Below, one piece after another: positions 7,171-31,396 of a stretch of DNA of 64,000 bases (position 1 is its first letter; every line of letters begins with the position of its first letter). A program made the position numbers and the translations under genes. The notes under the pieces are model-generated. The model saw nothing but the letters and a program-made list of their open reading frames with translations, made no database searches and was not told where the DNA came from. The DNA is from Deroplatys truncata (taxonomy: Eukaryota; Arthropoda; Insecta; Mantodea; Mantidae): NCBI GenBank assembly GCA_030765065.1, contig CM060984.1, positions 100,793,488 through 100,857,487 of the forward strand. The letters are read 5' to 3'.

Positions 7171-7179
7171 CTATGCGTT

Positions 7180-8497: not shown

Positions 8498-8499
8498 AT

Positions 8500-11821: not shown

Positions 11822-12060
11822 AACGCATTAGGGTTTTAATCAAAATCGTTTGTGTCATTCTTTAAAAAATAAAAAACTCAAGGAAAAATCCATGCAAAGC
11901 GTAGTTTGGAGTGGACGGATTTTCTTGAGAATCTTAGTGTCGCATCCCTGGAAGACGCTGAACTTAAATGGCAAGTTTGGTATTTAACCGAATTTCTGTA
12001 TATTAGTTATGTTGTCCACATACTAATACACACATACAGACTTTTCCATAGACATGTTTA
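11822..12060 (-). repeat. R1 dispersed repeat, partial
   Basis: Diverged fragment ending where the orientation of the array flips. Confidence 0.55.
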
Positions 12061-12943
12061 TTACTTTCTCTACTACGTATAGTAAGTAGGGGAAGTATTG
12101 CATTCCACCCAAAAATTCGATACCGAGATTTCACCGGAAATACATGTTTTGAGAATCACTGAATCCAAAAAAAGCATTTTTGGAAACATGTCCGTGTGTG
12201 TGTCTGTGTGTGTGTGTCTGTGTGTGTCTGTGTGTCTGTGAACAGCATAACTCAAAAACGATCAGTCGGATAAACACCAAACTTGGTATTTAGGTTCAGT
12301 ATCTTTCAGAGATGCGACACGAAGGTTTTCAAGAAAATCCCCCCACCCCAGACTACCCTTTACATGGAACATTTTTCGAAAATTTTAATTTTCTCAAAAA
12401 CGGCTCTAACGATTTTGATTAAAATATCATATGTTTAAGATATTGTCATGACAAATAAAATGTATATCTCGAATTTTCTGGGAATGTCTCCAAAAATATT
12501 CTTCATTGTGAACGACTTTTGCATAACTGGTAAACCATAAGAGATAGACAAAATTTTACTACACAAAAAATGTAGATCGCGTTAAAAAGCACAACTTATG
12601 TCATATACGTTTCTTTTGTTGAGTGAACCGTTTTCGAGATATTGCTTGTTATTTCCTTAAATTTTCCAATACTTATACTTTTTCTCAAATTCGTTATTCA
12701 TTTTTTTATGTCCTGAACATGCAAAGAGAATGGAATTCGCCACATAGCAACCAGCGTTAAAATATTTGACTATCGCTTAAAAGCTACCATATTCCCCTTG
12801 CATCTACAAGAAAATTACCAATAAGATTGACATCTCGATATCTCGATTAACATGAAGCATATGGAGAATAGGCGTTTGTAAAATTAGATTGTACAAGAGT
12901 AGAGAAAGTTATGTGAGTGTAACACATCAGATTTTTTTTTATT
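12061..12943 (+). repeat. R1 dispersed repeat, full-length, opposite orientation
   Basis: Plus-strand copy starting TTACTTTCTCTACTACGTAT, with a TG-rich tract at 12,190-12,238. It faces the minus-strand copies to its left. Confidence 0.8.
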
Positions 12944-13055
12944 CATTTGGATCTGAAAACATGTATTTCCGGTAAAATCTAGGTATTGATTTTTTGAGTG
13001 GAATACAATACTCTTCTTTACTTGCCATAGGCAATAGGTAAAGAAAATAATAAGC
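12944..13055 (-). repeat. R1 dispersed repeat, end fragment
   Basis: Only the segment from TTCATTTGGATCTGAAAACA to the terminal GGTAAAGAAAATAA remains. Confidence 0.55.
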
Positions 13056-13563
13056 ATAGAACTAGTGTTATAGTGTTAAGCGGTTATATAAGAGGAACCC
13101 TTATTTTTCTTCTTTTAATTATCCTGAAGCACAGCGTTTCTCAGAATGGAGAAGTGAAACGCTTCAATTAAATGGAATCCGAAAGAAGCTATAATGCTCC
13201 ATAAAATGCTGGCCAAATCGTTACAGCTTAACCTTGACACTAGTGAGCGAAGATGGAGTCATTGACCCAGAAGTGGTGCTTTAAAATGTTAAGGAAGCTG
13301 AGTTAGTACAGATAAGATTACATATTTTATTAGCATTCCTTCTGACAAACAGCGGCCTTGCGGCTTTCGTGCATGCAAACTCACGCATTACATTAAGGTA
13401 TACTTTGAACCCAATTACGCATTTAACCTGCAAATTCCCTCAACGTATTTTAAATGGAGCCCTGAAGAATCAATCTCATTCACTGTATTTTATTGCTTAG
13501 AAAGAAAACCTTTCTACTTTCCCAGTTTCTAGATTATCGTATTGAAAAATCCTAAGATATAAC

Positions 13564-13595
<32 letters not shown>

Positions 13596-13660
13596 CAACA
13601 ATCCCGTAGCGCTACAGTCCTTTTAAGACCTAGAATGAAAAGGAAAGAGTGCTATAATAG
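13056..13660. other. Unassigned, with (AAT)n and a short repeat end
   Basis: Mostly unassigned. An (AAT)n tract lies at 13,561-13,592, followed by AATCCCGTAGCGCTACAGTC, a motif common at the edge of insect repeats. No gene was seen. Confidence 0.4.
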
Positions 13661-13665
13661 TATAT

Positions 13666-13786
13666 TATGCAATGAGACTATAATGGTAGTAATTAAAACA
13701 CGAGTATTATTATTAACCGAGCGAGCGAAGCGAGGTTAATAATTATCATACGAGCGTTTTAATCACCATTATAGTCAAGTTTCATA
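13666..13786. repeat. Long imperfect hairpin centred on GAGCGAGCGAAGCGAG
   Basis: GACTATAATGGT at 13,676 pairs with ACCATTATAGTC ending at 13,776. The arms run to TTAACC/GGTTAA around CGAGCGAGCGAAGCGAGG. It looks like a small MITE or a terminal-repeat pair of a deleted DNA transposon. Confidence 0.6.
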
Positions 13787-14053
13787 CGACTGTTTATGCT
13801 CGACCATGTATCTAAATTAAAGGTTTCATAAGTATTCGTTTCTGGTTTGAGTGATGTGTTACAATCGTTATTCCTTTATCTATGGTTACAATACCTTGTA
13901 GCACTTGTGTCAAACAAAGTTGTTAGCGTTGTGAGACGTACTACGAGAATAATTGATACTTGCGCTTTCACAATGTTACGTGGCCACTTCTGATTGGTCG
14001 AATACCAATACTTTAATGAACAGGTGTACTTTAATGAGGCCTATTATACAAGA
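13787..14053. other. No feature recognised
   Basis: Unassigned sequence between the hairpin and an R1 copy. Confidence 0.4.
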
Positions 14054-14405
14054 TTCTACAACATTCCTATTCTCAAAAATTCAAGATACGCATTTTAATT
14101 GTTATGTAAATATCTTTAATATATGGTATTTTAATCAAAATCATTATAGCTATTTTTAGAAAATAAAAAATTTGGAAAAATGTTCCATGTATAGGTAGTC
14201 GCATCTTTGGAAGGTACTGAACTTAAAGACTAAGCTCGGCGTTTATCCGATTTTTTGTTTTTGAGTTGTGCACACAGACTTTTTTTCTAATAATGCTTTT
14301 TTTGGATCCAGGGAGCCACAAAACATGTATTTCCGGTGAAATCTCGGTATCGATTTTTTGGTTCAACCTTCTCTACCTATAAGTATGCGGTAAAGAAAGT
14401 AACAA
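14054..14405 (-). repeat. R1 dispersed repeat, partial
   Basis: Minus-strand copy of the older subfamily ending GCGGTAAAGAAAGTAAC, followed at once by the next unit. Confidence 0.6.
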
Positions 14406-15077
14406 TTTGATGTGATACATTCACATGACTCTCCACCCTCCATCGTTTATTAGTGGGTAAACAAACTAGTCTTATTGAAGCTTATTTTTATATCTACTTC
14501 ATTTTAATCCCAAAAAACTTTTGCAGAAATAGCTACATTACACATTTTGTTATAAATACAAAGGAAATAGCGGTAGTCTAATGTTTAAAAACTGAACGTT
14601 ATACGCTGGTCTTAAAATGCCTTACTGTTTCAATGAAATCGCGAAAACAATTGAATGTTGTCAGGACTTTAAAAGAATTGTTAAGCTTTGAAAAAGTCGA
14701 ACCATTAATAATGGATATCTCGCAAATGGCTGATGCCACAAACAAGGCTGTTTCAAACAAATTGTGTATTTTAAAGAGATCTGCGTTTCTTGTGTAGAAC
14801 GCTTCCTCTATCGCTTAACGTTTATCAGCTATACAAGATTATACTAAATTCCTTCCGAATGAAGAGAACTTCAAAAGCTATTCCCAGAAAATTCAATATA
14901 TACATTTTATTTTACCATGTAAATACCTTTAATGTATGGTGTTTTAATCAAAATCGTTAGAGTCATTTTTTAAAACCAAACATTTAGAAAAATGTTCCAT
15001 GTAAATGGTAATTGGGATGGGGGATTTTCTTCAAAATCTTCGTGTCGCATCTTTGAAATGCACTGAACTTAAAGATA
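14406..15077 (-). repeat. R1 dispersed repeat, host copy, first part
   Basis: A diverged R1 copy interrupted after CTTAAAGATA by the nested mariner and palindromic elements. The other half resumes at 31,466. Confidence 0.7.
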
Positions 15078-15182
15078 GGATTACTCAAAAAGAAGGAACA
15101 GAGTTTAAATATGTATTTCTAATGAACGACAATAGATGGTGACACATGCGATACATCACTGAATAGAGAAAAGTTCAAAATG

Positions 15183-15503: not shown

Positions 15504-15509
15504 CGTATG
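15504..15509. other. Target-site duplication CGTATG, left copy
   Basis: CGTATG lies immediately before the AG start of the palindromic element and is repeated exactly at 31,391-31,396. Joining the sequence outside the two copies regenerates a continuous mariner-type terminal repeat, which confirms that this is the true insertion point. Confidence 0.92.
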
Positions 15510-16830
15510 AGTAGGATATATAGGAGAGAGCTGGGCCACTTTTTTGCGTTTATATGGGAAAGGATAGGGAAAACGAGGCTGGATGGGGTGGTTCAAGGAG
15601 GAAAATGCGTTTATATGGGAGAGATAGGGAATACGACGACCGATACTATGCTAAAGAGGGTTGAAGGAGGGAAATACGTTTATATGGAAGAAATAGTAGA
15701 GAGGTGTTAGGCTAGGAGGGTTTAAGTATGCGTTTATAAGGAGAGACGAGAAAACGGAGAGAGATCCTATGTTAGGATACAAAGGTGTTAAAGTTAGGTT
15801 AGATAGGAAACCAAAGAGATACTCAGCTAGACAGGGGACAGGAGAGGAATGCGCTTTATGAGAGGTAGAGGATACGGGGAGTGGTGTTAGGCTAGACAGA
15901 GGTTGAGAGTAGAGTATGCGTTTATATGTTTGAGAAGTATAGGAACAGGAAGAGGGTGCTAGGCTAGACAGAGGTTGAGGAGTAGAGTATAGGTTATATG
16001 AGAGGTATAGGAAAACGAGGGGAGGTGTTAGGTTAGACAGAGGCTGAGTAATGTATGGTTTATGTGAGCGGTATAGGAAAACGATGAGAGGTGTTAGACT
16101 AGACAGGGCTTGAAACGTAGTGCATGGTTTATATGAGAGATATAGGAAAACGAGGAAAGGTGTTAGGCTAGACAGAAGTCGAGGAGTAGAGTATGGTTTA
16201 TATCAGAAGTATAGGAAAACGAGGAGAGGTATTAGGTTAGGAGAATTGAGTTTGTGTTTATAAGGAGAGACGAGAAAACGGAGAGAGATCCTATGCTAGG
16301 ATAGACAGGTGTTAAAGTTAGGTTAGATAGGAAACCAAGGAGTGATACTCAGCTAGAGGGGGGTAGGAGGGAATGAGCTTTTGAGAGGTAGGGGATACGG
16401 GGAGTGGTGTTAGGCTAGACAGGGCTTGAAACGTAGGGCATGGTTTATATGTATGAAAAGTATAGGAACAGGAAGAGGGGTGCTAGGCTAGACAGAGGTT
16501 GAGGAGTAGAGTATAGTTTATATGAGAGGTATAGGAAAACGAGGAGAGGAGTTAGACTAAACAGAGGTCGAGGAGCAGAGTATGGTTTATGTGAGAGTCA
16601 TAGGTAAACGAGAGAGGCGTTAGGCTAGACAGAGCTAGAGGAGTAGAGAATGGTTTATATGAGAGGTATAGGAACAGGAGGAGAGGTGTTAGGCTAGACA
16701 GGTAGTGTAGCAGTAGGAATATGGACTTATATACAGGAGAGATAGGGAATTGGAGGTGCTAGACTTGAAAGCGACTTTAGACGTGAACTTAGTGGAAAAC
16801 TGTTTCATGTCAATGTTCTAGACATGCCCA
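15510..16830. repeat. Outer satellite block, left arm (units of about 69 bp)
   Basis: Degenerate tandem units built on GTGTTAGGCTAGACAGAGG, then GAGGAGTAGAGTATGG, then TTTATATGAGAGGTATAGG, with a spacing of about 65-72 bp. The strand is strongly purine-rich. Tandem repeats near the ends are known in Polintons. No reading frame of substance. Confidence 0.75.
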
Positions 16831-16847
16831 TCACGTAACCTATTCAG

Positions 16848-17045
16848 GGAAAAGGTGACTCGTTCAGGGGAAAAAGGTGACTGCTCAGGGAAAAAGGAGG
16901 CCCACAAAGGGAAAAAGTTGACTAGCAAAGGGAAAAACGTGACCAGTAAAGGGAAAAATGTCACCAGCAAAGGGGAAAATGTAACCAGCAAAGGGAAAAA
17001 GGTGAGCCATAAAGGGAAAAAGATGACCTGCAACGGGAAAAGCTA
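16848..17045. repeat. 21-bp tandem repeat, left arm
   Basis: About ten units of AGGGAAAAAGGTGACCAGCAA type. Because 21 is a multiple of three, frames stay open on both strands: a lysine-rich heptad (TSKGKNV) on the plus strand and a hydrophobic heptad on the minus. I treat it as a satellite, not a gene. Confidence 0.75.
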
Positions 17046-18135
17046 ACCCACTAACACTAACAGGTAAGTAATTCAGGTAGTATTGCAAGAGGCTGACTGG
17101 ATCATAGCAGTACATGATTTCACAGGTAATTCAGCTAGTATCGTATGTATTTAGGCTAATTCGTCTAATAACACAGGATAGATTCCAGATGCTAACTGCA
17201 TCATGGCTCTGCATGATTTCACAGATAATTCAGTTAGTATCGTAGGTATTTAGGCTAATTCAGCTAGTATCACAAGAGGATAGATTCTAGGGTTGGGTAT
17301 AGCATAGTTTCATATTTCACAGGTAATTCAGGTAGTATCACGGGTGCTCGTGCTAATTTAGAGCAGGAATTCGTATCAGAGCTAGTTAAGGTAATTTCAC
17401 ATGACTCGGGTAGTATCACAGGTATTTAAATCATTTTCACAGCCAATTCAGCTAGTATCTTGAGCATTTAAGCTAATTCAGCTAGTATCACAGGAGGCTA
17501 GATTCCAGAGGCTAACTGCATCATAGCTATGCATGATTTCACAGCTAATTCAGCTAGTATCATAGGTATTTAGGCTAATTCAGCTAGTATCACAGGAGGT
17601 TAGATTTCAGGGCTGGGTATAGCATAGTTTCATATTTCACAGGTAATTCAGAGGGTATCGTAGGTATTTAGGATAATTCAAGTAACATAGGTGTTTAGAG
17701 TAATTAAGCAAGCATTACAGGAGGGTAGGTTCCAGGGGTCGGTTATAGCCTAGTTTCGTATTTTACAGATAGTTCAGATAATATCGTAAGTATTTGGGTA
17801 ATCAGCATAGTTTCACAGATGCTCGTGATAATTTTGATCAGAGATTTGTATCACAGCTATTTAAGGTAAGTGCAGGTGATTCAGGTTGTATCAATGGTAT
17901 TTGTGTCATTTTAACAGGTAATTCAGATAGTGTCTAGGTATTTGGGCGATTCAAGCATCATAGGTGTTTAGAGTAACTCAGCTAGTATCACAGGAGGCTA
18001 GATTCAATGATCAGGGTTTCGTATCAGAGCTATTTAATGTAATTTCACTTGATTCGAGTAGTATCACAGGTATTTAAGTCATTTAACGGGCAATTCAGCC
18101 AGTATCACAGGTACTCATGGTAATATAGAGAGTAA
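17046..18135. repeat. Inner satellite block, left arm
   Basis: Short motifs alternate and recur, mainly AATTCAGCTAGTATCACAGG and GGTATTTAGGCTAATTCAG, with longer repeats of AGATTCCAGAGGCTAACTGC. It is a composite satellite with higher-order structure and no coding signal. Confidence 0.7.
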
Positions 18136-18502
18136 TTAAATTATAAAACATTTCTCATCCAACGTTACAACAATTTATATACTTTTTTCTAAATCTTACA
18201 AACTTATTATATGTTAAACAGTTATTGTACGATGCGGAGAGGGATAAACTGCATATTGGTTCACAAATTGAAAAGCTTTACGTCAACATACCTTTATTTT
18301 AGTTAGGTGTAGATGTCTCTCCCCTTTTATCTAGGCTTGAGAATAGCACTAGGATTGCTCCTAATGGCAGGGTTACCACCTTCCCTTCCATCTTCTTCTT
18401 TCTTCATCAGGCGTCAGCTATCTGCATATACAGCACACAGATAACCTTCTTTTTTAAGATTGTAGACTCACGATAAAATCTTTATCTTTAACTTACATTC
18501 TT
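18136..18502 (-). other. 3' flank of left polymerase gene
   Basis: About 370 bp of non-repeated sequence between the stop codon and the satellite blocks. Apart from the poly(A) signal it holds a short inverted repeat, TATCTG/CAGATA, near 18,420 that could form a hairpin in the mRNA 3' end. Confidence 0.5.
18293..18298 (-). terminator. Poly(A) signal AATAAA, left arm
   Basis: Mirror copy of the right-arm signal, 205 bp past the stop of the left polymerase gene on the minus strand. Confidence 0.6.
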
Positions 18503-21500
18503 TTAAGCACTGTTTGTAATGGCGTAATGTCCATACGCATATGTCGTTATCCCATCCTCAGCAATAATTCTTTTATCATCAAACGGAGTCAATGCAATTT
18601 TATTCACTTGCACTGTAGCAAGAGCATGCTTTCGTGATAGGATCAGATTCATAGGTGTTCTGATGATTTCACAGGTTTTAAGACAGTCTGTATAGCTGTC
18701 AAACGAAATGTACTGCTTAATAGCGCTACGTTTTATACCTTTAATCTTTTTTATCATTGACCCTTGAATATCTAAGGCATACATCTTAGGACGTAGTCCA
18801 ACAAAGCGTAGGATGATTTTGCTATTAGCCTCATCTTTAAATTTTCCCAATACCTTTTTGTTCTGAGTAGAGTAACATATATGGTTGGCAGGGTAATCAG
18901 CTGTATCGAGATGCTCAAGAAAACGTAGCTTGTCCTGGTACACATCTTCAGTTGTTACACGATGAATGAACGAATCAGTGTCCATATACATAAGCTTCAG
19001 GTTTTTAGCTCCATAATAAGGCAACAAAACGTCGTAATGATAGTTATACATTAATGTCTTGGAGATGTCCAACACACTCATACCAATGTATATAGGCTTG
19101 TTGAATACAATCTGACGAGAGGCCATATGTACAGCAGCTAGATTATCAGCATATATCGTCCTGTCGATAAACGTAGGCTTGGCGATCAGCTTCTCTAGAG
19201 TTTTTTCACTGGTCACCAGTCGTATATCCATGCGGTTACGCAGGTTCTCCATAGTTTTTCCAAACATGGCGTTGTTAAAGAGTTTGTAGAGATCCTTCTC
19301 GAAGTCATTTGCAGCTTGTTGTCGTAGCCTGTTGTTAAATTCCACATAAGGTTTCAACCACTGAGACTGTTGGAATTGTAGCACACGATGGATTTTTGTT
19401 AGTCGTAGTCCATGACTAAGAGCTTGCTTCAAAGCCATGTAATGCACTACATACTTCTTTCGAGGTCCAAGATGAGGTATCAGTTTCTTTGTAGATGCTT
19501 CCAATGGCTTCATACACTCAGGCAGGAAAGGTAGATCGTTGTGTAGATCGTGAAGTTCTACAGGATATTCGATATCAACTTCTAATATGTACCCATGAGG
19601 ATCATCTTCTTGTAGTGTTTCTAAGTTGATTTCTTCAGACGAAACCCACTGAAATCCACCAAAAGGAAGGGCGTGACACATTGCCCACCCATATTGGTTA
19701 TTGGCGTCCTCATATGTGATAAATTGGCTTGGTCTCGTAGGATCAAACTTCTCCATATACGCGTTATTAGCTTCAGCATACCGATGGGAAACTTGACATA
19801 AACCTCCTCTTATACCTGATTCCACCATGAGTAGTTGATCGTAATCTTGTAACAGCTCCAGCTTAATTCCTGTATACAACAACATGGCGTCCCATGTAAG
19901 TCCTGGAGAGGTAAAATAATGCGCGGGGTCAACTTTGTGTGTTTTGAGGGTTTGCTCTCTGAACGTCTCAAAGACATCGGCTAGGAGTAGTACATCTGAG
20001 GTTAAGTACAGGTCGCTGTACTCGCCCAGGTTTCTCACATTAAACAGCTCCCATACATTTCTAGCATGATCATAGTCAACATCACTAATTTCTTCTTCAT
20101 TTAATCTATTGTAGAAGGAGTCCTTAGGAGGCAAGCAGGTCTCGTTCAAAACATCCCATGACGTAACAAAATCATATGGAAATACACCCTTACGGGTCAT
20201 CAACTTCAATTTGTCTTCTCCAAAGTACTTTAGTGTTTCAGGATATGAGGTTAGATTTTTTACCAACTTATCCAAGCTTGTACTGAGGAATCGGAAGCTA
20301 TCCACAAATCGAAGCTTTATATCTCCTACATACTTGGTGAATGAGATATAGCTTTCTTCAGAGTTAGGAATTACCTCCACAAGTTCACTTGTACAACCCA
20401 GCTCCTTAACAATGAAATGAGAGTCATATCCGCTAAGGTTATGCATGAAGACTGGTATATATTTAGGTGTTTTACAGGCTAAATTACATTCATTATGAAG
20501 ACTTCCACGATATTCACCGCTGATGTGATCATGGTCGCGTACTTTGTAGTTCTCTTCTGTAAAGCCTTTTCCACACAAGTAGCATGTCGTAGAAGACTCA
20601 AAATCCTTTTGCTGTTGATCCGTAAGTTTCAGAGGCTTAGCAGATTTGTATATATTACCAATCATTTTTGCAAGAGATGTCAGGTACAGCATAAACTTCT
20701 GAGCAGCATCAGCACCACGATACACATAGGGATGCTTAGGAAGATCAGTTTCGAGATGTTCAACACTGGATGTAGGTTTCACGTAAACACAGAAGCTCAT
20801 TGGTGTGTGCTCTTGATAAGGTGTTGTATAGGAAGTTTCAGGATTGGGTGTACACGTATGGCATGGAGTGAGAATACTCTCAAAATCAGCATAGATGACA
20901 TAAGGTACTTTCAGCATCCTCTCAATATTTTTAAACTGTGCAATTGCTTTCTCCTTGCTAGGCATAACAACCCTTGCAACACCATGTTGAATACAGACGG
21001 CTGCATGTTCTTGTAGTTTTTCCAGTCCACTTCGTCCATATCGATCATCAAAATGTGTAAAGCAGCGCTTACAAGTATAAACCCGTCCATTATGGTTAGT
21101 TTTCTGGCGTCGAACGAGCTTCTCAAAATTCCTTATATACACGTAGTGATGTTTTCCACTGCTATCATTCAATAGTAGCAGGTCGCGATGTTCAGGTAGT
21201 TCAATATCAGCAACCTTTATCGGATACACTTCATGCTTCTCATCCAGCCCGAAAACGTTAATAGACATATTGTTAAACTTCTCAAATTTAGGTATTTGAG
21301 AAAGTGGAGTAGGGTAGGAAACACAGCTGAAGTCGTACTTGTCTTGAAGTTGTTTGTATTTGCTGACGCGTTGAGGCTTGATGCTCACGAATTTGGCCAG
21401 TATAGAGTACATGAAACATTTCTCGTCGGTAAAGTTCTGGATGTTTATACATGCTTTCCTTGCTTCAACAGCTGACGGTAGTGGTATGTAGCTACTTCCT

Positions 21501-22156
21501 CGTAACGGGTTGTACTTGTTGATACGAAGTCGAACTCCTTCCACAGCAAGCAAAGCCCAGCTGCTACCCTTAAGCTGAGACTCCTCCATTTCAGTCACCA
21601 ATTTCTTGAATTTCACTTCCATCGTTGAGTCCAGATCAGTTTCCAGGAAAACAGCTTGGTTCCGTGTTTTAAATGTTTTGTCACAGGTTTCTCCAATACT
21701 GTTAACAAATCGACACTCAGCCAGCAGATTAATTTTAACACTCTTATGAATGCTAAGCTCTTTATGCACAGCCTGGATTATACGTTGTTTTGCCTCTTGC
21801 AGATACATATTTAGGTCCTTAGCTGATTCGCATCGTATAAAATACGATTTCAATCGTCCTTCGAATGAAGTTTCGTATTCTTTCATATCACAGTCCTCCA
21901 TTGTTGACAGTAACTGATGTTTAGTTGGCTCCAATCTTCTTTTCTTCTGAGGGCTGCTTATTTCACATATATCTTCGTGTCGCTGTCCCTTATAACAATC
22001 TTTGAAGGTTACATTACAATGTTTACATTTGAAGAGCTTCTTGCAGCTCATCTCGTGTCTTCTCTTGTCATAACCTCGGAGGAACTTCTTCCCACATTTT
22101 CCGCATGCATATCCAGTAGCGCTTGGAATAATATCCTTATACGCTGAGTTATTCAT
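18503..22156 (-). CDS. Protein-primed-type family B DNA polymerase, left-arm copy (1,217 aa)
   Basis: This is a replicative DNA polymerase predicted to copy the linear mobile element in the nucleus. Two C2HC zinc fingers open the protein (C18, C21, H34, C38; C44, C47, H60, C64). The 3'-5' exonuclease motifs are intact: ExoI D424/E426 in YADFES, ExoII N573/D578 in NLSGYDSHF, ExoIII Y717/D721 in YLTSDVLL. The polymerase motifs are intact: A with D817 in EDANNQYG, B with K958 in KLFNNAMFGK, C with D1059/D1061 in YMDTDS. Between ExoI and ExoII sits an endonuclease VII-like Cys/His module (C525, C528, DHDH 541-544, C557). The length suits Polinton polymerases. The start follows a TATA-initiator promoter and nothing longer is open. 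It differs from the right-arm copy at I411 and L592 only. A dedicated terminal protein was not recognised; the N-terminal 420 residues could supply one (inference). Confidence 0.93.
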   Translation of the reverse strand: MNNSAYKDIIPSATGYACGKCGKKFLRGYDKRRHEMSCKKLFKCKHCNVTFKDCYKGQRHEDICEISSPQKKRRLEPTKHQLLSTMEDCDMKEYETSFEGRLKSYFIRCESAKDLNMYLQEAKQRIIQAVHKELSIHKSVKINLLAECRFVNSIGETCDKTFKTRNQAVFLETDLDSTMEVKFKKLVTEMEESQLKGSSWALLAVEGVRLRINKYNPLRGSSYIPLPSAVEARKACINIQNFTDEKCFMYSILAKFVSIKPQRVSKYKQLQDKYDFSCVSYPTPLSQIPKFEKFNNMSINVFGLDEKHEVYPIKVADIELPEHRDLLLLNDSSGKHHYVYIRNFEKLVRRQKTNHNGRVYTCKRCFTHFDDRYGRSGLEKLQEHAAVCIQHGVARVVMPSKEKAIAQFKNIERMLKVPYVIYADFESILTPCHTCTPNPETSYTTPYQEHTPMSFCVYVKPTSSVEHLETDLPKHPYVYRGADAAQKFMLYLTSLAKMIGNIYKSAKPLKLTDQQQKDFESSTTCYLCGKGFTEENYKVRDHDHISGEYRGSLHNECNLACKTPKYIPVFMHNLSGYDSHFIVKELGCTSELVEVIPNSEESYISFTKYVGDIKLRFVDSFRFLSTSLDKLVKNLTSYPETLKYFGEDKLKLMTRKGVFPYDFVTSWDVLNETCLPPKDSFYNRLNEEEISDVDYDHARNVWELFNVRNLGEYSDLYLTSDVLLLADVFETFREQTLKTHKVDPAHYFTSPGLTWDAMLLYTGIKLELLQDYDQLLMVESGIRGGLCQVSHRYAEANNAYMEKFDPTRPSQFITYEDANNQYGWAMCHALPFGGFQWVSSEEINLETLQEDDPHGYILEVDIEYPVELHDLHNDLPFLPECMKPLEASTKKLIPHLGPRKKYVVHYMALKQALSHGLRLTKIHRVLQFQQSQWLKPYVEFNNRLRQQAANDFEKDLYKLFNNAMFGKTMENLRNRMDIRLVTSEKTLEKLIAKPTFIDRTIYADNLAAVHMASRQIVFNKPIYIGMSVLDISKTLMYNYHYDVLLPYYGAKNLKLMYMDTDSFIHRVTTEDVYQDKLRFLEHLDTADYPANHICYSTQNKKVLGKFKDEANSKIILRFVGLRPKMYALDIQGSMIKKIKGIKRSAIKQYISFDSYTDCLKTCEIIRTPMNLILSRKHALATVQVNKIALTPFDDKRIIAEDGITTYAYGHYAITNSA

Positions 22157-22314
22157 CTTTATTCTCGATGTAATAACGTATTAATCACTGATCAATGAAA
22201 TGTAGACCTCTTCACCTTGACACCACTTTAGAAAGCTGATTATTCTTGGAGAGAACACGATGTTAACACCTCAAGACTAATTAGCACAATGAAGTCCAAT
22301 GCCCTAGATCACCA

Positions 22315-22322
22315 TATTTATA
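22315..22322 (-). promoter_or_regulatory. TATA box of left-arm polymerase gene
   Basis: Exact mirror of the right-arm TATA box, with the initiator-like element centred near 22,290 on the minus strand. It drives transcription away from the loop. Confidence 0.7.
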
Positions 22323-22441
22323 GAGGGAGCACGAACCTTTTAGATCAATCATAAACTCGCTCCATAACCACCTGTATATGATCGCTCAACGTGTACTAAC
22401 CCCCCAGCCATATAACTTCAAGTCTAGAGACAGGATGTTTA

Positions 22442-22449
22442 TGACGTCA
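22442..22449. promoter_or_regulatory. CRE/ATF-like palindrome TGACGTCA, left arm
   Basis: Mirror of the right-arm site, with the same flanking direct repeats, upstream of the left polymerase gene. Confidence 0.45.
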
Positions 22450-22783
22450 CACCCAGAGACAGGATGTCTGGCAGCATCAAACACGTTTAAACTCGTCTCA
22501 TAACTACCTGCTTATGCTGTCACACCAGCAAGAGAAGTATTCCCACACGCTCATTCAGACATATATTTCAAATTCAAGCCCACCACCACCATCACCACCT
22601 ATTGTACCAAGGTTAATTCAAGCTGTATTATCACAATACTTAAAAGTAAAAGCTTAAAAGGAAACCTAGAAGATTTTCCCCCTTATTTACTTAATTATCT
22701 CATGTTTTCATTCCCTTTTCAATTCTTCCTTTCCATCTTCTCACAGAAAGACCATTACATTTCACTACAATCATGAGAAAAGC

Positions 22784-24116
22784 AATTTTTCCATAGTTAC
22801 ACAGATTCTAAGCTTCTAAATCGAACCGGGTAATACTTTCAATAAATGTATTTTAGCTCCCCAATATCAGCATCTACCATTTCATCTTTACTCGAACCTG
22901 ATATGATCCATAAGCTTGAAGATATATGAAATCACCCCTTCGGGATTCGATCTGAGTACTTTAAAGTAATATTTGTCACGATAACGATATTTAAGGACTA
23001 GATACTCTGTTTGCGTTTACCTTGACATGTTTATCTAAATTAAATTACGAGTTATTAAATTTATAATTAAATTACATTTTATCGGTATTCGAACCCAGAA
23101 CACCAGGAACAAGATAATTTATAATATTAGTCTGACATGTTTAAAGGTGCTGTATGCAGTTATATCATCGATCTAAGTGATATATTCTAGTGTACAGAGG
23201 AAAATTAAGAAAGTCATTAAAAATCGGGAATCGAACCAAGCACAACTGATTGACAATTATATACAGTATTAATTGTCCATCATAGGAGCTATCAATCATG
23301 CTTTAGTCCACTCCTCTACCTCACTTAGTTCCCGAGATAATGAAAATTTAAAAATTAAAGATCGAATCCAGGACGTCAGGTATCTAATTACGCATTTACA
23401 AGATACTACCTAATAACATAAACGCAATAAAGTTTATTTGGCGTCTATATCTTAATTGGTAGGAGTTATTAAATTTATAAGTAAATTCCATCGAATCAGT
23501 ATTCGAACCCAGAACACCAAGAACAAAATAATTTATAATGTGAGTTTGGTATGCTTAAAGGTGCTGTATGTAGTTACAGCATCAATCTAAGTGATATTTT
23601 CTAGAGTATAGAGTAAAATTAAGGAAGTCATTAAAAATCGGGATTCGAACTAGAGACAACTGATTAAAAATTATATACAGTACTAATTACACATTATAAC
23701 AGCTATCAAACATGCTTTGGTCCATTCCTCTAGCTTTCTTAGTTTCCGAGATAATAAAGTTTTTAAAATTAAGGATCGAATCCAGGACACCAGGTACCCA
23801 AATATACATTTACAAGAAACTACCTAATGACATTAATGTAATAAAGTTTATTTGGCGTCTTTATCTTAATTAGTCTCTGAGTTATTAGAAGATGAATTTG
23901 TAATCACTCGTAGGATTCGAACCCAGGAATCCAGGTCAACTTGGAACAATACCCTAATGACGCGGCGCATTCCAAAGAATTGATTAGTTTTTATCCCATT
24001 GTTCTATCTCTTTTCATTCAGGAGATATAAGCGATTAAACAGTAGAAATATAATGGCGACTTGAGCCCACAGAGAGATGCCGACATCTGATAAAGTTCTT
24101 TGATCTATGCCGGCAA
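22784..24116 (-). repeat. Palindrome loop: 10-unit array of tRNA-like repeats
   Basis: Ten minus-strand T-loop/B-box-like motifs are spaced through the whole loop. The plus-strand TCGA cores start at 22,821, 22,947, 23,089, 23,231, 23,362, 23,503, 23,645, 23,776 and 23,917, with a degenerate TTGA at 24,061. Successive spacings are 126, 142, 142, 131, 141, 142, 131, 141 and 144. The 142-131-141 pattern repeats as a 414-bp higher-order unit, clearest over 23,045-23,930. Two motifs (cores 23,231 and 23,917) match the pol III B box GGTTCGANTCC exactly on the minus strand. Several units also share an A-box-like ATTAGGTAGT about 50 nt before the B box. No unit folds as a full tRNA by eye. Origin from a tRNA-derived repeat is inference; the periodicity is seen directly. 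Confidence 0.8.
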
Positions 24117-24450
24117 GCTTTTCTCATGATTGTAGTGAAATGTAATGGTCTTTCTGTGAGAAGATGGAAAGGAAGAATTGAAAAGGGAATGAAAACATGA
24201 GATAATTAAGTAAATAAGGGGGAAAATCTTCTAGGTTTCCTTTTAAGCTTTTACTTTTAAGTATTGTGATAATACAGCTTGAATTAACCTTGGTACAATA
24301 GGTGGTGATGGTGGTGGTGGGCTTGAATTTGAAATATATGTCTGAATGAGCGTGTGGGAATACTTCTCTTGCTGGTGTGACAGCATAAGCAGGTAGTTAT
24401 GAGACGAGTTTAAACGTGTTTGATGCTGCCAGACATCCTGTCTCTGGGTG

Positions 24451-24458
24451 TGACGTCA
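24451..24458. promoter_or_regulatory. CRE/ATF-like palindrome TGACGTCA, right arm
   Basis: A perfect TGACGTCA lies about 127 bp upstream of the TATA box, between two direct copies of ACATCCTGTCTCT (24,433-24,445 and 24,461-24,473). Arrangement and distance fit an upstream activator site for bZIP factors; function is inferred. Confidence 0.45.
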
Positions 24459-24577
24459 TAAACATCCTGTCTCTAGACTTGAAGTTATATGGCTGGGGGG
24501 TTAGTACACGTTGAGCGATCATATACAGGTGGTTATGGAGCGAGTTTATGATTGATCTAAAAGGTTCGTGCTCCCTC

Positions 24578-24585
24578 TATAAATA
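24578..24585 (+). promoter_or_regulatory. TATA box of right-arm polymerase gene
   Basis: TATAAATA, followed by an arthropod-type initiator TTCATT with its A at 24,610, 32 nt downstream of the first T. This is the expected TATA-to-start spacing and gives a leader of about 134 nt before the ATG at 24,744. The start site is inferred. Confidence 0.7.
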
Positions 24586-24743
24586 TGGTGATCTAGGGCA
24601 TTGGACTTCATTGTGCTAATTAGTCTTGAGGTGTTAACATCGTGTTCTCTCCAAGAATAATCAGCTTTCTAAAGTGGTGTCAAGGTGAAGAGGTCTACAT
24701 TTCATTGATCAGTGATTAATACGTTATTACATCGAGAATAAAG

Positions 24744-27700
24744 ATGAATAACTCAGCGTATAAGGATATTATTCCAAGCGCTACTGGATATGCATGCGGA
24801 AAATGTGGGAAGAAGTTCCTCCGAGGTTATGACAAGAGAAGACACGAGATGAGCTGCAAGAAGCTCTTCAAATGTAAACATTGTAATGTAACCTTCAAAG
24901 ATTGTTATAAGGGACAGCGACACGAAGATATATGTGAAATAAGCAGCCCTCAGAAGAAAAGAAGATTGGAGCCAACTAAACATCAGTTACTGTCAACAAT
25001 GGAGGACTGTGATATGAAAGAATACGAAACTTCATTCGAAGGACGATTGAAATCGTATTTTATACGATGCGAATCAGCTAAGGACCTAAATATGTATCTG
25101 CAAGAGGCAAAACAACGTATAATCCAGGCTGTGCATAAAGAGCTTAGCATTCATAAGAGTGTTAAAATTAATCTGCTGGCTGAGTGTCGATTTGTTAACA
25201 GTATTGGAGAAACCTGTGACAAAACATTTAAAACACGGAACCAAGCTGTTTTCCTGGAAACTGATCTGGACTCAACGATGGAAGTGAAATTCAAGAAATT
25301 GGTGACTGAAATGGAGGAGTCTCAGCTTAAGGGTAGCAGCTGGGCTTTGCTTGCTGTGGAAGGAGTTCGACTTCGTATCAACAAGTACAACCCGTTACGA
25401 GGAAGTAGCTACATACCACTACCGTCAGCTGTTGAAGCAAGGAAAGCATGTATAAACATCCAGAACTTTACCGACGAGAAATGTTTCATGTACTCTATAC
25501 TGGCCAAATTCGTGAGCATCAAGCCTCAACGCGTCAGCAAATACAAACAACTTCAAGACAAGTACGACTTCAGCTGTGTTTCCTACCCTACTCCACTTTC
25601 TCAAATACCTAAATTTGAGAAGTTTAACAATATGTCTATTAACGTTTTCGGGCTGGATGAGAAGCATGAAGTGTATCCGATAAAGGTTGCTGATATTGAA
25701 CTACCTGAACATCGCGACCTGCTACTATTGAATGATAGCAGTGGAAAACATCACTACGTGTATATAAGGAATTTTGAGAAGCTCGTTCGACGCCAGAAAA
25801 CTAACCATAATGGACGGGTTTATACTTGTAAGCGCTGCTTTACACATTTTGATGATCGATATGGACGAAGTGGACTGGAAAAACTACAAGAACATGCAGC
25901 CGTCTGTATTCAACATGGTGTTGCAAGGGTTGTTATGCCTAGCAAGGAGAAAGCAATTGCACAGTTTAAAAATGTTGAGAGGATGCTGAAAGTACCTTAT
26001 GTCATCTATGCTGATTTTGAGAGTATTCTCACTCCATGCCATACGTGTACACCCAATCCTGAAACTTCCTATACAACACCTTATCAAGAGCACACACCAA
26101 TGAGCTTCTGTGTTTACGTGAAACCTACATCCAGTGTTGAACATCTCGAAACTGATCTTCCTAAGCATCCCTATGTGTATCGTGGTGCTGATGCTGCTCA
26201 GAAGTTTATGCTGTACCTGACATCTCTTGCAAAAATGATTGGTAATATATACAAATCTGCTAAGCCTCTGAAACTTACGGATCAACAGCAAAAGGATTTT
26301 GAGTCTTCTACGACATGCTACTTGTGTGGAAAAGGCTTTACAGAAGAGAACTACAAAGTACGCGACCATGATCACATCAGCGGTGAATATCGTGGAAGTC
26401 TTCATAATGAATGTAATTTAGCCTGTAAAACACCTAAATATATACCAGTCTTCATGCATAACCTTAGCGGATATGACTCTCATTTCATTGTTAAGGAGCT
26501 GGGTTGTACAAGTGAACGTGTGGAGGTAATTCCTAACTCTGAAGAAAGCTATATCTCATTCACCAAGTATGTAGGAGATATAAAGCTTCGATTTGTGGAT
26601 AGCTTCCGATTCCTCAGTACAAGCTTGGATAAGTTGGTAAAAAATCTAACCTCATATCCTGAAACACTAAAGTACTTTGGAGAAGACAAATTGAAGTTGA
26701 TGACCCGTAAGGGTGTATTTCCATATGATTTTGTTACGTCATGGGATGTTTTGAACGAGACCTGCTTGCCTCCTAAGGACTCCTTCTACAATAGATTAAA
26801 TGAAGAAGAAATTAGTGATGTTGACTATGATCATGCTAGAAATGTATGGGAGCTGTTTAATGTGAGAAACCTGGGCGAGTACAGCGACCTGTACTTAACC
26901 TCAGATGTACTACTCCTAGCCGATGTCTTTGAGACGTTCAGAGAGCAAACCCTCAAAACACACAAAGTTGACCCCGCGCATTATTTTACCTCTCCAGGAC
27001 TTACATGGGACGCCATGTTGTTGTATACAGGAATTAAGCTGGAGCTGTTACAAGATTACGATCAACTACTCATGGTGGAATCAGGTATAAGAGGAGGTTT
27101 ATGTCAAGTTTCCCATCGGTATGCTGAAGCTAATAACGCGTATATGGAGAAGTTTGATCCTACGAGACCAAGCCAATTTATCACATATGAGGACGCCAAT
27201 AACCAATATGGGTGGGCAATGTGTCACGCCCTTCCTTTTGGTGGATTTCAGTGGGTTTCGTCTGAAGAAATCAACTTAGAAACACTACAAGAAGATGATC
27301 CTCATGGGTACATATTAGAAGTTGATATCGAATATCCTGTAGAACTTCACGATCTACACAACGATCTACCTTTCCTGCCTGAGTGTATGAAGCCATTGGA
27401 AGCATCTACAAAGAAACTGATACCTCATCTTGGACCTCGAAAGAAGTATGTAGTGCATTACATGGCTTTGAAGCAAGCTCTTAGTCATGGACTACGACTA
27501 ACAAAAATCCATCGTGTGCTACAATTCCAACAGTCTCAGTGGTTGAAACCTTATGTGGAATTTAACAACAGGCTACGACAACAAGCTGCAAATGACTTCG
27601 AGAAGGATCTCTACAAACTCTTTAACAACGCCATGTTTGGAAAAACTATGGAGAACCTGCGTAACCGCATGGATATACGACTGGTGACCAGTGAAAAAAC

Positions 27701-28397
27701 TCTAGAGAAGCTGATCGCCAAGCCTACGTTTATCGACAGGACGATATATGCTGATAATCTAGCTGCTGTACATATGGCCTCTCGTCAGATTGTATTCAAC
27801 AAGCCTATATACATTGGTATGAGTGTGTTGGACATCTCCAAGACATTAATGTATAACTATCATTACGACGTTTTGTTGCCTTATTATGGAGCTAAAAACC
27901 TGAAGCTTATGTATATGGACACTGATTCGTTCATTCATCGTGTAACAACTGAAGATGTGTACCAGGACAAGCTACGTTTTCTTGAGCATCTCGATACAGC
28001 TGATTACCCTGCCAACCATATATGTTACTCTACTCAGAACAAAAAGGTATTGGGAAAATTTAAAGATGAGGCTAATAGCAAAATCATCCTACGCTTTGTT
28101 GGACTACGTCCTAAGATGTATGCCTTAGATATTCAAGGGTCAATGATAAAAAAGATTAAAGGTATAAAACGTAGCGCTATTAAGCAGTACATTTCGTTTG
28201 ACAGCTATACAGACTGTCTTAAAACCTGTGAAATCATCAGAACACCTATGAATCTGATCCTATCACGAAAGCATGCTCTTGCTACAGTGCAAGTGAATAA
28301 AATTGCATTGACTCCGTTTGATGATAAAAGAATTATTGCTGAGGATGGGATAACGACATATGCGTATGGACATTACGCCATTACAAACAGTGCTTAA
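24744..28397 (+). CDS. Protein-primed-type family B DNA polymerase, right-arm copy (1,217 aa)
   Basis: Mirror-image partner of the left-arm polymerase, same length, with no stop or frameshift. All catalytic residues of the exonuclease (D424, E426, N573, D578, Y717, D721) and polymerase (D817, K958, D1059, D1061) are present, as are both N-terminal zinc fingers, the conserved NPLRGSSYIPLP segment near residue 216 seen in mobile polymerases of this lineage, and the endonuclease VII-like insert at about 525-561. It differs at V411 and R592; L592R is the only non-conservative change and lies outside the catalytic motifs. Its 5' leader is about 134 nt from a likely initiator, and the AATAAA signal lies about 205 bp past the stop. 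The gene points outward from the central loop, so the two copies are transcribed divergently. Both copies look functional; whether both are expressed cannot be told. Confidence 0.93.
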   Translation: MNNSAYKDIIPSATGYACGKCGKKFLRGYDKRRHEMSCKKLFKCKHCNVTFKDCYKGQRHEDICEISSPQKKRRLEPTKHQLLSTMEDCDMKEYETSFEGRLKSYFIRCESAKDLNMYLQEAKQRIIQAVHKELSIHKSVKINLLAECRFVNSIGETCDKTFKTRNQAVFLETDLDSTMEVKFKKLVTEMEESQLKGSSWALLAVEGVRLRINKYNPLRGSSYIPLPSAVEARKACINIQNFTDEKCFMYSILAKFVSIKPQRVSKYKQLQDKYDFSCVSYPTPLSQIPKFEKFNNMSINVFGLDEKHEVYPIKVADIELPEHRDLLLLNDSSGKHHYVYIRNFEKLVRRQKTNHNGRVYTCKRCFTHFDDRYGRSGLEKLQEHAAVCIQHGVARVVMPSKEKAIAQFKNVERMLKVPYVIYADFESILTPCHTCTPNPETSYTTPYQEHTPMSFCVYVKPTSSVEHLETDLPKHPYVYRGADAAQKFMLYLTSLAKMIGNIYKSAKPLKLTDQQQKDFESSTTCYLCGKGFTEENYKVRDHDHISGEYRGSLHNECNLACKTPKYIPVFMHNLSGYDSHFIVKELGCTSERVEVIPNSEESYISFTKYVGDIKLRFVDSFRFLSTSLDKLVKNLTSYPETLKYFGEDKLKLMTRKGVFPYDFVTSWDVLNETCLPPKDSFYNRLNEEEISDVDYDHARNVWELFNVRNLGEYSDLYLTSDVLLLADVFETFREQTLKTHKVDPAHYFTSPGLTWDAMLLYTGIKLELLQDYDQLLMVESGIRGGLCQVSHRYAEANNAYMEKFDPTRPSQFITYEDANNQYGWAMCHALPFGGFQWVSSEEINLETLQEDDPHGYILEVDIEYPVELHDLHNDLPFLPECMKPLEASTKKLIPHLGPRKKYVVHYMALKQALSHGLRLTKIHRVLQFQQSQWLKPYVEFNNRLRQQAANDFEKDLYKLFNNAMFGKTMENLRNRMDIRLVTSEKTLEKLIAKPTFIDRTIYADNLAAVHMASRQIVFNKPIYIGMSVLDISKTLMYNYHYDVLLPYYGAKNLKLMYMDTDSFIHRVTTEDVYQDKLRFLEHLDTADYPANHICYSTQNKKVLGKFKDEANSKIILRFVGLRPKMYALDIQGSMIKKIKGIKRSAIKQYISFDSYTDCLKTCEIIRTPMNLILSRKHALATVQVNKIALTPFDDKRIIAEDGITTYAYGHYAITNSA

Positions 28398-28764
28398 AAG
28401 AATGTAAGTTAAAGATAAAGATTTTATCGTGAGTCTACAATCTTAAAAAAGAAGGTTATCTGTGTGCTGTATATGCAGATAGCTGACGCCTGATGAAGAA
28501 AGAAGAAGATGGAAGGGAAGGTGGTAACCCTGCCATTAGGAGCAATCCTAGTGCTAGTCTCAAGCCTAGATAAAAGGGGAGAGACATCTACACCTAACTA
28601 AAATAAAGGTATGTTGACGTAAAGCTTTTCAATTTGTGAACCAATATGCAGTTTATCCCTCTCCGCATCGTACAATAACTGTTTAACATATAATAAGTTT
28701 GTAAGATTTAGAAAAAAGTATATAAATTGTTGTAACGTTGGATGAGAAATGTTTTATAATTTAA
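28398..28764 (+). other. 3' flank of right polymerase gene
   Basis: Mirror of the left 3' flank. One difference was seen, at 28,557 against 18,343. The TATCTG/CAGATA hairpin lies near 28,457-28,482. Confidence 0.5.
28602..28607 (+). terminator. Poly(A) signal AATAAA, right arm
   Basis: AATAAA lies 205 bp past the polymerase stop codon, before the satellite blocks begin. It is the first canonical signal downstream. Confidence 0.6.
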
Positions 28765-29854
28765 TTACTCTCTATATTACCATGAGTACCTGTGATACTG
28801 GCTGAATTGCCCGTTAAATGACTTAAATACCTGTGATACTACTCGAATCAAGTGAAATTACATTAAATAGCTCTGATACGAAACCCTGATCATTGAATCT
28901 AGCCTCCTGTGATACTAGCTGAGTTACTCTAAACACCTATGATGCTTGAATCGCCCAAATACCTAGACACTATCTGAATTACCTGTTAAAATGACACAAA
29001 TACCATTGATACAACCTGAATCACCTGCACTTACCTTAAATAGCTGTGATACAAATCTCTGATCAAAATTATCACGAGCATCTGTGAAACTATGCTGATT
29101 ACCCAAATACTTACGATATTATCTGAACTATCTGTAAAATACGAAACTAGGCTATAACCGACCCCTGGAACCTACCCTCCTGTAATGCTTGCTTAATTAC
29201 TCTAAACACCTATGTTACTTGAATTATCCTAAATACCTACGATACCCTCTGAATTACCTGTGAAATATGAAACTATGCTATACCCAGCCCTGAAATCTAA
29301 CCTCCTGTGATACTAGCTGAATTAGCCTAAATACCTATGATACTAGCTGAATTAGCTGTGAAATCATGCATAGCTATGATGCAGTTAGCCTCTGGAATCT
29401 AGCCTCCTGTGATACTAGCTGAATTAGCTTAAATGCTCAAGATACTAGCTGAATTGGCTGTGAAAATGATTTAAATACCTGTGATACTACCCGAATCATG
29501 TGAAATTACCTTAACTAGCTCTGATACGAATTCCTGCTCTAAATTAGCACGAGCACCCGTGATACTACCTGAATTATCTGTGAAATATGAAACTATGCTA
29601 TACCCAACCCTAGAATCTATCCTCTTGTGATACTAGCTGAATTAGCCTAAATACCTACGATACTAACTGAATTATCTGTGAAATCATGCAGAGCCATGAT
29701 GCAGTTAGCATCTGGAATCTATCCTGTGTTATTAGACGAATTAGCCTAAATACATACGATACTAGCTGAATTACCTGTGAAATCATGTACTGCTATGATC
29801 CAGTCAGCCTCTTGCAATACTACCTGAATTACTTACCTGTTAGTGTTAGTGGGT
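28765..29854. repeat. Inner satellite block, right arm
   Basis: Mirror of the left inner satellite block; same motifs in reverse complement. Confidence 0.7.
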
Positions 29855-30052
29855 TAGCTTTTCCCGTTGCAGGTCATCTTTTTCCCTTTATGGCTCACCT
29901 TTTTCCCTTTGCTGGTTACATTTTCCCCTTTGCTGGTGACATTTTTCCCTTTACTGGTCACGTTTTTCCCTTTGCTAGTCAACTTTTTCCCTTTGTGGGC
30001 CTCCTTTTTCCCTGAGCAGTCACCTTTTTCCCCTGAACGAGTCACCTTTTCC
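29855..30052. repeat. 21-bp tandem repeat, right arm
   Basis: Mirror of the left 21-bp block, with the same open heptad frames. Confidence 0.75.
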
Positions 30053-30069
30053 CTGAATAGGTTACGTGA

Positions 30070-31390
30070 TGGGCATGTCTAGAACATTGACATGAAACAG
30101 TTTTCCACTAAGTTCACGTCTAAAGTCGCTTTCAAGTCTAGCACCTCCAATTCCCTATCTCTCCTGTATATAAGTCCATATTCCTACTGCTACACTACCT
30201 GTCTAGCCTAACACCTCTCCTCCTGTTCCTATACCTCTCATATAAACCATTCTCTACTCCTCTAGCTCTGTCTAGCCTAACGCCTCTCTCGTTTACCTAT
30301 GACTCTCACATAAACCATACTCTGCTCCTCGACCTCTGTTTAGTCTAACTCCTCTCCTCGTTTTCCTATACCTCTCATATAAACTATACTCTACTCCTCA
30401 ACCTCTGTCTAGCCTAGCACCCCTCTTCCTGTTCCTATACTTTTCATACATATAAACCATGCCCTACGTTTCAAGCCCTGTCTAGCCTAACACCACTCCC
30501 CGTATCCCCTACCTCTCAAAAGCTCATTCCCTCCTACCCCCCTCTAGCTGAGTATCACTCCTTGGTTTCCTATCTAACCTAACTTTAACACCTGTCTATC
30601 CTAGCATAGGATCTCTCTCCGTTTTCTCGTCTCTCCTTATAAACACAAACTCAATTCTCCTAACCTAATACCTCTCCTCGTTTGCCTATACTTCTGATAT
30701 AAACCATACTCTACTCCTCGACTTCTGTCTAGCCTAACACCTTTCCTCGTTTTCCTATATCTCTCATATAAACCATGCACTACGTTTCAAGCCCTGTCTA
30801 GTCTAACACCTCTCATCGTTTTCCTATACCGCTCACATAAACCATACATTACTCAGCCTCTGTCTAACCTAACACCTCCCCTCGTTTTCCTATACCTCTC
30901 ATATAACCTATACTCTACTCCTCAACCTCTGTCTAGCCTAGCACCCTCTTCCTGTTCCTATACTTCTCAAACATATAAACGCATACTCTACTCTCAACCT
31001 CTGTCTAGCCTAACACCACTCCCCGTATCCTCTACCTCTCATAAAGCGCATTCCTCTCCTGTCCCCTGTCTAGCTGAGTATCTCTTTGGTTTCCTATCTA
31101 ACCTAACTTTAACACCTTTGTATCCTAACATAGGATCTCTCTCCGTTTTCTCGTCTCTCCTTATAAACGCATACTTAAACCCTCCTAGCCTAACACCTCT
31201 CTACTATTTCTTCCATATAAACGTATTTCCCTCCTTCAACCCTCTTTAGCATAGTATCGGTCGTCGTATTCCCTATCTCTCCCATATAAACGCATTTTCC
31301 TCCTTGAACCACCCCATCCAGCCTCGTTTTCCCTATCCTTTCCCATATAAACGCAAAAAAGTGGCCCAGCTCTCTCCTATATATCCTACT
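30070..31390. repeat. Outer satellite block, right arm (units of about 69 bp)
   Basis: Mirror of the left outer block, pyrimidine-rich on the plus strand. One substitution was seen, 30,684 against 16,216. Confidence 0.75.
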
Positions 31391-31396
31391 CGTATG
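31391..31396. other. Target-site duplication CGTATG, right copy
   Basis: Exact match to 15,504-15,509, directly after the CT end of the element. A 6-bp duplication is typical of Polinton integration by a retrovirus-like integrase. Confidence 0.92.

What the first reader, a model, noticed from the sequence alone, without database searches (positions are those of the whole stretch)
15510..31390. Polymerase-only giant palindromic element of the Polinton lineage
Two 7,274-bp arms, each with an intact 1,217-aa family B polymerase, face away from a 1.3-kb loop. None of the other Polinton genes (integrase, cysteine protease, packaging ATPase, capsid proteins) is visible. I know of no described element with this architecture. 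A plausible origin is fold-back copying of a displaced single strand during protein-primed replication, which would duplicate the polymerase-bearing end and lose the integrase-bearing end. That the whole palindrome is bounded by one target duplication shows it moved as a unit.
Basis: partly seen in the sequence, partly recalled or inferred. Interest (0 to 1): 0.95.

Follow-up and report, generated by a model that had tools for sequence, protein, structure and literature searches.

The report
Palindromic polymerase-only Polinton-like transposon family
A mobile DNA element present in many copies in this large genome is built as a giant mirror image of itself, with one DNA-copying gene in each half, and the two halves stay matched, which suggests it is remade by folding back on itself each time it is copied.

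Summary
In detail: a 15,881-bp element (15510-31390) with two 7,274-bp arms (6 mismatches), a 1,217-aa PolB in each arm, a 1,333-bp "loop" and a CGTATG target duplication.

It is not unique. I paired 67 copies with both ends in the 4.29-Gb host genome. All 12 read in full are palindromic to some extent, and 38 of 40 probed ones have pol mirrored. A typical copy is a near-perfect 17.2-kb palindrome. The window copy lost about 1.3 kb beside the centre, so its "loop" is the surviving half of the middle.

Of 42 copies, 39 have exact, distinct 6-bp duplications. In pol, arms of a copy differ by 0.05-0.16%, against a 2.35% median between copies. 401 differences are mirrored, 31 are not. Mirrored ones show purifying selection; unmirrored ones look neutral.

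So the arms are re-matched during replication, most simply by fold-back copying by the phi29-like polymerase at a conserved central hairpin (inferred). The 6-bp duplications imply a Polinton-type integrase acting in trans. No source is known, because helper-gene searches of the genome did not complete. The listings of nine literature searches showed no such element.

The parts
15504..15509 (.). left target-site duplication CGTATG
   Evidence: direct sequence
15510..22783 (+). left arm of the palindrome, 7,274 bp
15857..17802 (.). tandem-repeat arrays (periods about 21, 69, 102 and 125-135 bp) between the left end and pol; mirrored in the right arm
18503..22156 (-). intact 1,217-aa family B DNA polymerase of the protein-primed type, left copy
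22784..24116 (+). surviving half of the central region ('loop'), 1,333 bp, with two 85% matching 414-bp tandem units
24078..24115 (-). central hairpin, the symmetry point of typical copies
24117..31390 (-). right arm, inverted copy of the left arm; about 1.3 kb between it and the hairpin is missing compared with typical copies
24744..28397 (+). intact 1,217-aa polymerase, right copy (2 codon differences from the left copy)
31391..31396 (.). right target-site duplication CGTATG
   Evidence: direct sequence

Best explanation
The window holds one centre-deleted member of a multi-copy family of DNA transposons derived from Polintons/Mavericks. The transmissible form is a near-perfect palindrome of 2 x 8.6 kb carrying two divergent copies of one gene, a phi29-like DNA polymerase of the protein-primed type. 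Shown: the architecture, the multi-copy state, separate insertions with 6-bp duplications, selection on the polymerase, and concerted evolution of the arms. Inferred: the polymerase starts with a protein primer at the identical ends and displaces a strand up to the centre. There a conserved hairpin lets the new or displaced strand fold back, so both arms of the progeny descend from one arm (variant: the displaced self-complementary strand anneals on itself and mismatches are repaired). Inaccurate fold-back or later loss at the hairpin gives centre-deleted copies such as this one. Integration is done by a Polinton-type integrase supplied in trans.
For: Family: one search scored 150 end matches (of 22,973 first-look candidates); 67 head-to-head pairs, 37 of 67 being 17.0-17.3 kb. 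Structure: 12 of 12 copies read in full are palindromic, over 580 bp (C3_131) to 8,553 bp (C2_88) per arm; 38 of 40 further pairs carry a mirrored stretch about 4 kb from both ends, and the other 2 are short copies (11.3 and 11.5 kb) whose second probe falls past the centre. Central region: 34 of 40 scored sites are face-to-face pairs; of the 6 others, 4 (window, L052, L056, C12_40) are centre-deleted palindromes. Insertions: 39 of 42 copies have exact 6-bp duplications, all distinct. Arms: sisters in 6 of 6 copies with two long pol arms; 2-6 differences within a copy, median 2.35% between copies; 401 mirrored versus 31 unmirrored differences in 9 copies (counted per copy, so a change shared by two copies counts twice). 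Selection: median dN/dS 0.205 over 36 pairs of 9 copies with intact pol; private mirrored codon changes 78 of 140 synonymous, unmirrored 8 of 28, neutral expectation 27.4% under an assumed transition bias (binomial p 2.8e-12 and 0.83; Fisher p 0.012). Enzyme: motif residues invariant among 17 aligned sequences, including a dragonfly adintovirus PolB at 49% identity; AlphaFold2 pLDDT 92.8 for residues 400-1217, best PDB match phi29 polymerase, E 1.2e-18. Centre: the hairpin core is nearly unchanged in the 13 copies in which it was found. phi29 amplification makes inverted chimeras with intervening deletions in over 85% of rearrangements (PMC1855051, abstract).
Against: No integrase is encoded by the element, and no helper was found (genome searches for PF04665 and PF00770 did not complete). 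Two copies carry a broken pol with a lesion at the same place in both arms (C1_133, C11_191), so some copies were copied with polymerase in trans or were converted in place. In the terminal 660 bp the arms were each other's closest relatives in only 6 of 22 copies, because copies barely differ there. Arms are not always equal: in 5 of the 38 mirrored probe pairs the two probes were offset by indels, C16_363 has 18 mismatches between arms, and C14_39 and C7_76 are about 98-99% alike. C15_74 has 2,451 bp of host flank mirrored as well, so in-place inverted duplication can happen. The window pol does not reach the Pfam PolB family PF03175 at E 0.01 (2 of 17 scanned do). The hairpin-switch step rests on anatomy only, and the hairpin was not tested against shuffled sequence.
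Confidence: 0.7

Rival explanations
1. Palindromes are dead-end by-products: full-length Polintons (or an exogenous adintovirus) keep producing them by snap-back during replication, as adeno-associated virus makes snapback defective genomes. Selection and mirrored changes are inherited from the parent, and the palindrome does not replicate itself.
For: Selection on pol and mirrored changes would look the same. Snapback defective genomes are known in AAV (PMC8235507, abstract). The typical length of 17.2 kb equals the mean size of vertebrate Mavericks, about 17 kb with 10% variation, read there as a constrained genome size (PMC8097293, passages).
Against: No non-palindromic copy turned up among the 52 end pairs tested inside (12 read, 40 probed; 2 of the 40 uncertain) or the 38 central sites resolved out of 40. 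The centre is the same hairpin in copies several per cent apart in pol. The genome was not searched for other Polinton genes, so a rare parent is not excluded.
Confidence: 0.17
2. Ordinary elements inserted first and became palindromic in place by gene conversion or inverted duplication between the arms.
For: C15_74 shows a mirrored host flank of 2,451 bp at 99.7%, so such events occur. Two copies with mirrored pol lesions could be explained this way.
Against: 39 of 42 copies have intact, different direct 6-bp duplications. Unmirrored changes look neutral while private mirrored ones show selection; in-place conversion of dead copies would mirror neutral changes too. Conversion would have to produce the same hairpin centre at many sites.
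Confidence: 0.08
3. Assembly or amplification artefact.
For: Long palindromes are hard to assemble, and phi29 amplification makes inverted chimeras (PMC1855051, abstract). Raw reads could not be checked.
Against: Dozens of copies on many contigs with their own flanks and matching duplications; arms of one copy differ at specific sites; the same centre recurs.
Confidence: 0.02

Closest known systems
Polinton/Maverick elements
   Same: protein-primed-type PolB, 6-bp target duplications, AGT-type ends (vertebrate Mavericks: (AGT)2//(ACT)2, PMC8097293 passages), total length near 17 kb
   Different: no integrase, protease, ATPase or capsid gene; the 'inverted repeats' make up nearly the whole element; two pol copies
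Adintoviruses
   Same: PolB is 49% identical to the Ladona dragonfly adintovirus PolB
   Different: adintoviruses are defined by PolB with an OTU-like domain plus hexon, and also encode an integrase (PMC11071296, passages); only PolB is seen here
AAV snapback defective genomes
   Same: part of a genome in snapback (self-complementary) form (PMC8235507, abstract)
   Different: AAV uses another replication system (recalled); those are packaged by-products, not a chromosomal transposon family with selection on its gene
Adenovirus palindromic defective genomes (recalled, not from a call)
   Same: protein-primed replication, inverted duplication of one genome end
   Different: by-products of virus growth, not a chromosomal family
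Foldback transposons (recalled) and phi29 amplification chimeras
   Same: long inverted repeats; inverted chimeras with intervening deletions (PMC1855051, abstract)
   Different: Foldback elements have no such polymerase (recalled); the chimeras are test-tube products

Membership tests
[quoted passage not shown]
   but the window protein itself does not reach PF03175 in Pfam at E 0.01, and protein priming itself was not tested
Polinton/Maverick | retroviral-type (rve) integrase gene | tested here: not met
   ORF list: beside pol only ORFs of 71-173 aa, including a 76-aa ORF in the tandem repeats and ORFs antisense to pol; genes split by introns were not sought
Polinton/Maverick | adenovirus-like protease, packaging ATPase, capsid genes | tested here: not met
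   same ORF list; the 11 other copies read in full are covered almost entirely by matches to the window's arm and loop
Polinton/Maverick | 6-bp target-site duplication | tested here: met
   39 of 42 copies exact
Polinton/Maverick | terminal inverted repeats with AGT-type ends | tested here: met
   AGTAGG...CCTACT in 42 of 42 copies, which were picked by their match to this end; vertebrate Mavericks (AGT)2//(ACT)2 by PMC8097293
Polinton/Maverick | length near 17 kb | tested here: met
   median 17,147 bp over 67 pairs; window copy 15,881 bp
Adintovirus | PolB with OTU-like domain plus hexon | tested here: not met
   no second long ORF; OTU domain not tested
Snapback defective genome | part of a genome joined to its own mirror copy | tested here: met
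Snapback defective genome | depends on a full-length helper | not tested
   helper-gene searches did not complete (PF04665 first, last; PF00770)

The most novel reading that the evidence does not exclude
A self-perpetuating class of DNA transposon whose heritable genome is a giant palindrome. It encodes only its polymerase, rebuilds one arm from the other in every replication cycle at a central hairpin, and borrows a Polinton integrase (and perhaps a capsid, given the 17-kb size) as a satellite.
Probability: 0.55. Interest if true: 0.95.

Novelty: new variant of a known kind. Interest (0 to 1): 0.87.

Why it matters
Long palindromes are usually thought unstable, yet here one is the standard form of an amplified transposon. 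The arms form a natural record of replication: mirrored changes predate the last cycle, unmirrored ones postdate insertion, so each copy carries its own clock. It offers a natural system for asking how protein-primed polymerases fold back, how virus-like transposons shed genes and become satellites, and whether Maverick size reflects packaging.

Tried and rejected
Chance and artefact: rejected (see rivals). "Most 17-kb pairs are ordinary full Polintons": my first reading; dropped when pieces were read. Using only the terminal 660 bp to show arm matching: uninformative, too conserved. tRNA genes in the element: none. Rfam in the window: none at gathering scores. Viral contigs (IMG/VR) with a related pol: 5 stretches matched a pattern, none confirmed. 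Phage records: no match. PDB by sequence: no match at E 0.01. PHROGs: only endonuclease VII matches. Pfam of two ORFs outside the element: none. Literature: the listings of searches (open-access library; only the best 8-15 papers shown each, none in 32) named no palindromic Polinton; I saw passages of PMC11071296, PMC6431247 and PMC8097293 and the abstracts of PMC1855051 and PMC8235507. The host was not identified; contig sizes (one of 707 Mb) made me think of an insect with a large X, but nothing tested it.

Limits of the samples. Copies for full reading were ten of unusual length and one of typical length, so they over-represent centre-deleted copies; the end search favours copies with the window's termini, and both genome searches were capped. 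Searches used the 9 copies with both arms present over the region; C3_131, C8_53 and C7_76 dropped out. One search used only intact pol frames, which leans towards low dN/dS. One search's chance test had 60 shuffles per segment.
Full report
Observation. The palindrome is real and at the stated coordinates: two 7,274-bp arms, 6 mismatches, 1,333 bp between them, CGTATG on both sides. Each arm has an intact 1,217-aa ORF read outward from the centre; no other ORF exceeds 173 aa.

A family, not one element. A search of the host genome (4.29 Gb, 818 contigs) with the terminal 63 codons returned 150 scored matches, its limit, from 22,973 first-look candidates. I paired 134 of the 150 into 67 head-to-head pairs; 16 stayed unpaired and were not followed, though one of them (C4:134351392) lies by a palindromic centre. 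Median length is 17,147 bp and 37 of 67 lie between 17.0 and 17.3 kb. I first took these for ordinary Polintons. Reading 11 of them in pieces showed otherwise: all 11, and the window, are palindromic, though the mirrored stretch ranges from 580 bp (C3_131, most of one arm lost) to 8,553 bp. In the typical copy C2_88 the arms match over 8,553 bp with 3 mismatches and 1 gap around a 70-bp centre. Two 150-base probes per copy, about 4 kb in from each end, hit the same arm in mirror orientation in 38 of 40 further pairs; 32 of the 38 probe pairs are identical, 1 differs at one base, and 5 are offset by indels. The two exceptions are 11.3- and 11.5-kb copies whose second probe lies past the centre. 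Fifteen of the 67 pairs were not tested inside. A search with the loop scored 40 sites (of 4,929 candidates); 34 are face-to-face centres. Of the other six, four are centre-deleted palindromes (window, L052, L056, C12_40), one (C9_88) keeps part of the hairpin and was not read, and one is at a contig end.

What the window's loop is. Mapped on C2_88, the window's left half runs through to the hairpin at the symmetry point (24078-24115) and the right half lacks about 1.3 kb beside it. Of 13 asymmetric centres mapped, 6 (window, C8_53, C14_39, C11_191, L052, L056) keep the hairpin with one break at or near its foot; the other 7 have lost it. The breakpoints all differ, so these deletions are private to each copy. 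The hairpin core was found in 13 copies and is nearly unchanged there; its fold was computed without a shuffled control.

Insertion. 39 of 42 copies tested have exact 6-bp duplications, all different; C13_185 and C8_43 have one mismatch; C15_74 has its host flank mirrored for 2,451 bp at 99.7% and no duplication. The duplications lean towards nAYRTn (not tested statistically), a symmetry that an integrase acting on both strands would leave. The element has no integrase gene, so I infer one in trans.

The arms evolve together. In the pol tree the two arms of a copy are sisters in 6 of 6 copies with two long pol arms (support 0.74-1.0), with 2-6 differences against a between-copy median of 2.35% (range 0.33-4.6%, 130 comparisons). 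Over up to 4.35 kb of arm in 9 copies, 401 differences from the commonest state of the other copies are mirrored and 31 are not; shared changes count once per copy. In pol, unmirrored changes are 8 synonymous of 28, as expected without selection (27.4%); private mirrored ones are 78 of 140. dN/dS between copies is 0.205 at the median, with dS up to 0.104, among intact frames. The plain reading: changes become mirrored during active replication, under selection for a working polymerase, and arms drift apart after insertion. The terminal 660 bp cannot show this because copies barely differ there (arms closest in 6 of 22 copies). Intact pol is found in 13 of 24 arms, 9 of 12 copies. Two copies have pol lesions at the same place in both arms (C1_133 a stop at codon 35; C11_191 a frameshift near codon 650); these were either copied with polymerase in trans or converted in place.

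The enzyme. The best 120 of 3,517 relatives listed are 45-67% identical; the named ones are mostly arthropod proteins and include a dragonfly adintovirus PolB. Exonuclease and polymerase motif residues are invariant among 17 aligned sequences (motif names recalled). The model of residues 400-1217 (pLDDT 92.8) matches phi29 DNA polymerase best, a protein-primed, strand-displacing enzyme (established knowledge). Pfam finds Endonuclease_7 in 17 of 17 members and the PolB family PF03175 in 2 of 17, not in the window protein.

Mechanism. Shown: mirrored structure, mobility, selection, arm matching, a recurrent hairpin. Inferred: protein-primed start at either end, strand displacement to the centre, fold-back at the hairpin (or snap-back of the displaced strand with mismatch repair), integration in trans. 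phi29 polymerase in amplification reactions makes mostly inverted chimeras with intervening deletions (PMC1855051, abstract), much like the centres here. The 17.2-kb size is close to that of vertebrate Mavericks (PMC8097293, passages), so a doubled half-genome may also suit packaging by a helper; this is speculation.

Known kinds. By its polymerase, ends and duplications it is Polinton-like; by gene content it fails the Polinton definition; by form it resembles snapback defective genomes of AAV (PMC8235507, abstract). The listings of nine library searches named no palindromic Polinton family.

Noticed in passing
G000:C15:74232019-74249182 (L045, L046, L057, L058): One copy lies inside a larger inverted duplication: 2,451 bp of host flank is mirrored on both sides at 99.7%, and there is no target duplication.
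   Followed up: partly
L056 (also L050, L012) centre: Some centres carry a 16-base stretch resembling the element's own terminus (positions 15-30): 15 of 16 in L056, 14 of 16 in L050; 0 of 60 shuffles of either segment reached 15. It may be a templated insertion from the end.
   Followed up: partly
copies of 18,009, 18,012 and 18,013 bp: A second length class about 0.84 kb longer than typical, which would fit one extra 414-bp unit in each half; sequence not checked.
   Followed up: no
window 1-15100 and 33500-61500: The flanks hold many copies, in both directions, of a repeat family with stretches of about 150-900 bp (for example 2018-2775, 9287-10135, 10896-11822, 12057-12938, 46455-48494, 54987-55921).
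   Followed up: no
C3_131 and C13_185 right flanks: Two copies share the right flank GGATAAATACCAAACTT, so both seem inserted at the same place of another dispersed repeat.
   Followed up: no
window pol, residues 521-560: Weak Endonuclease VII match inside the polymerase, shared by all 17 members scanned; role unknown.
   Followed up: no
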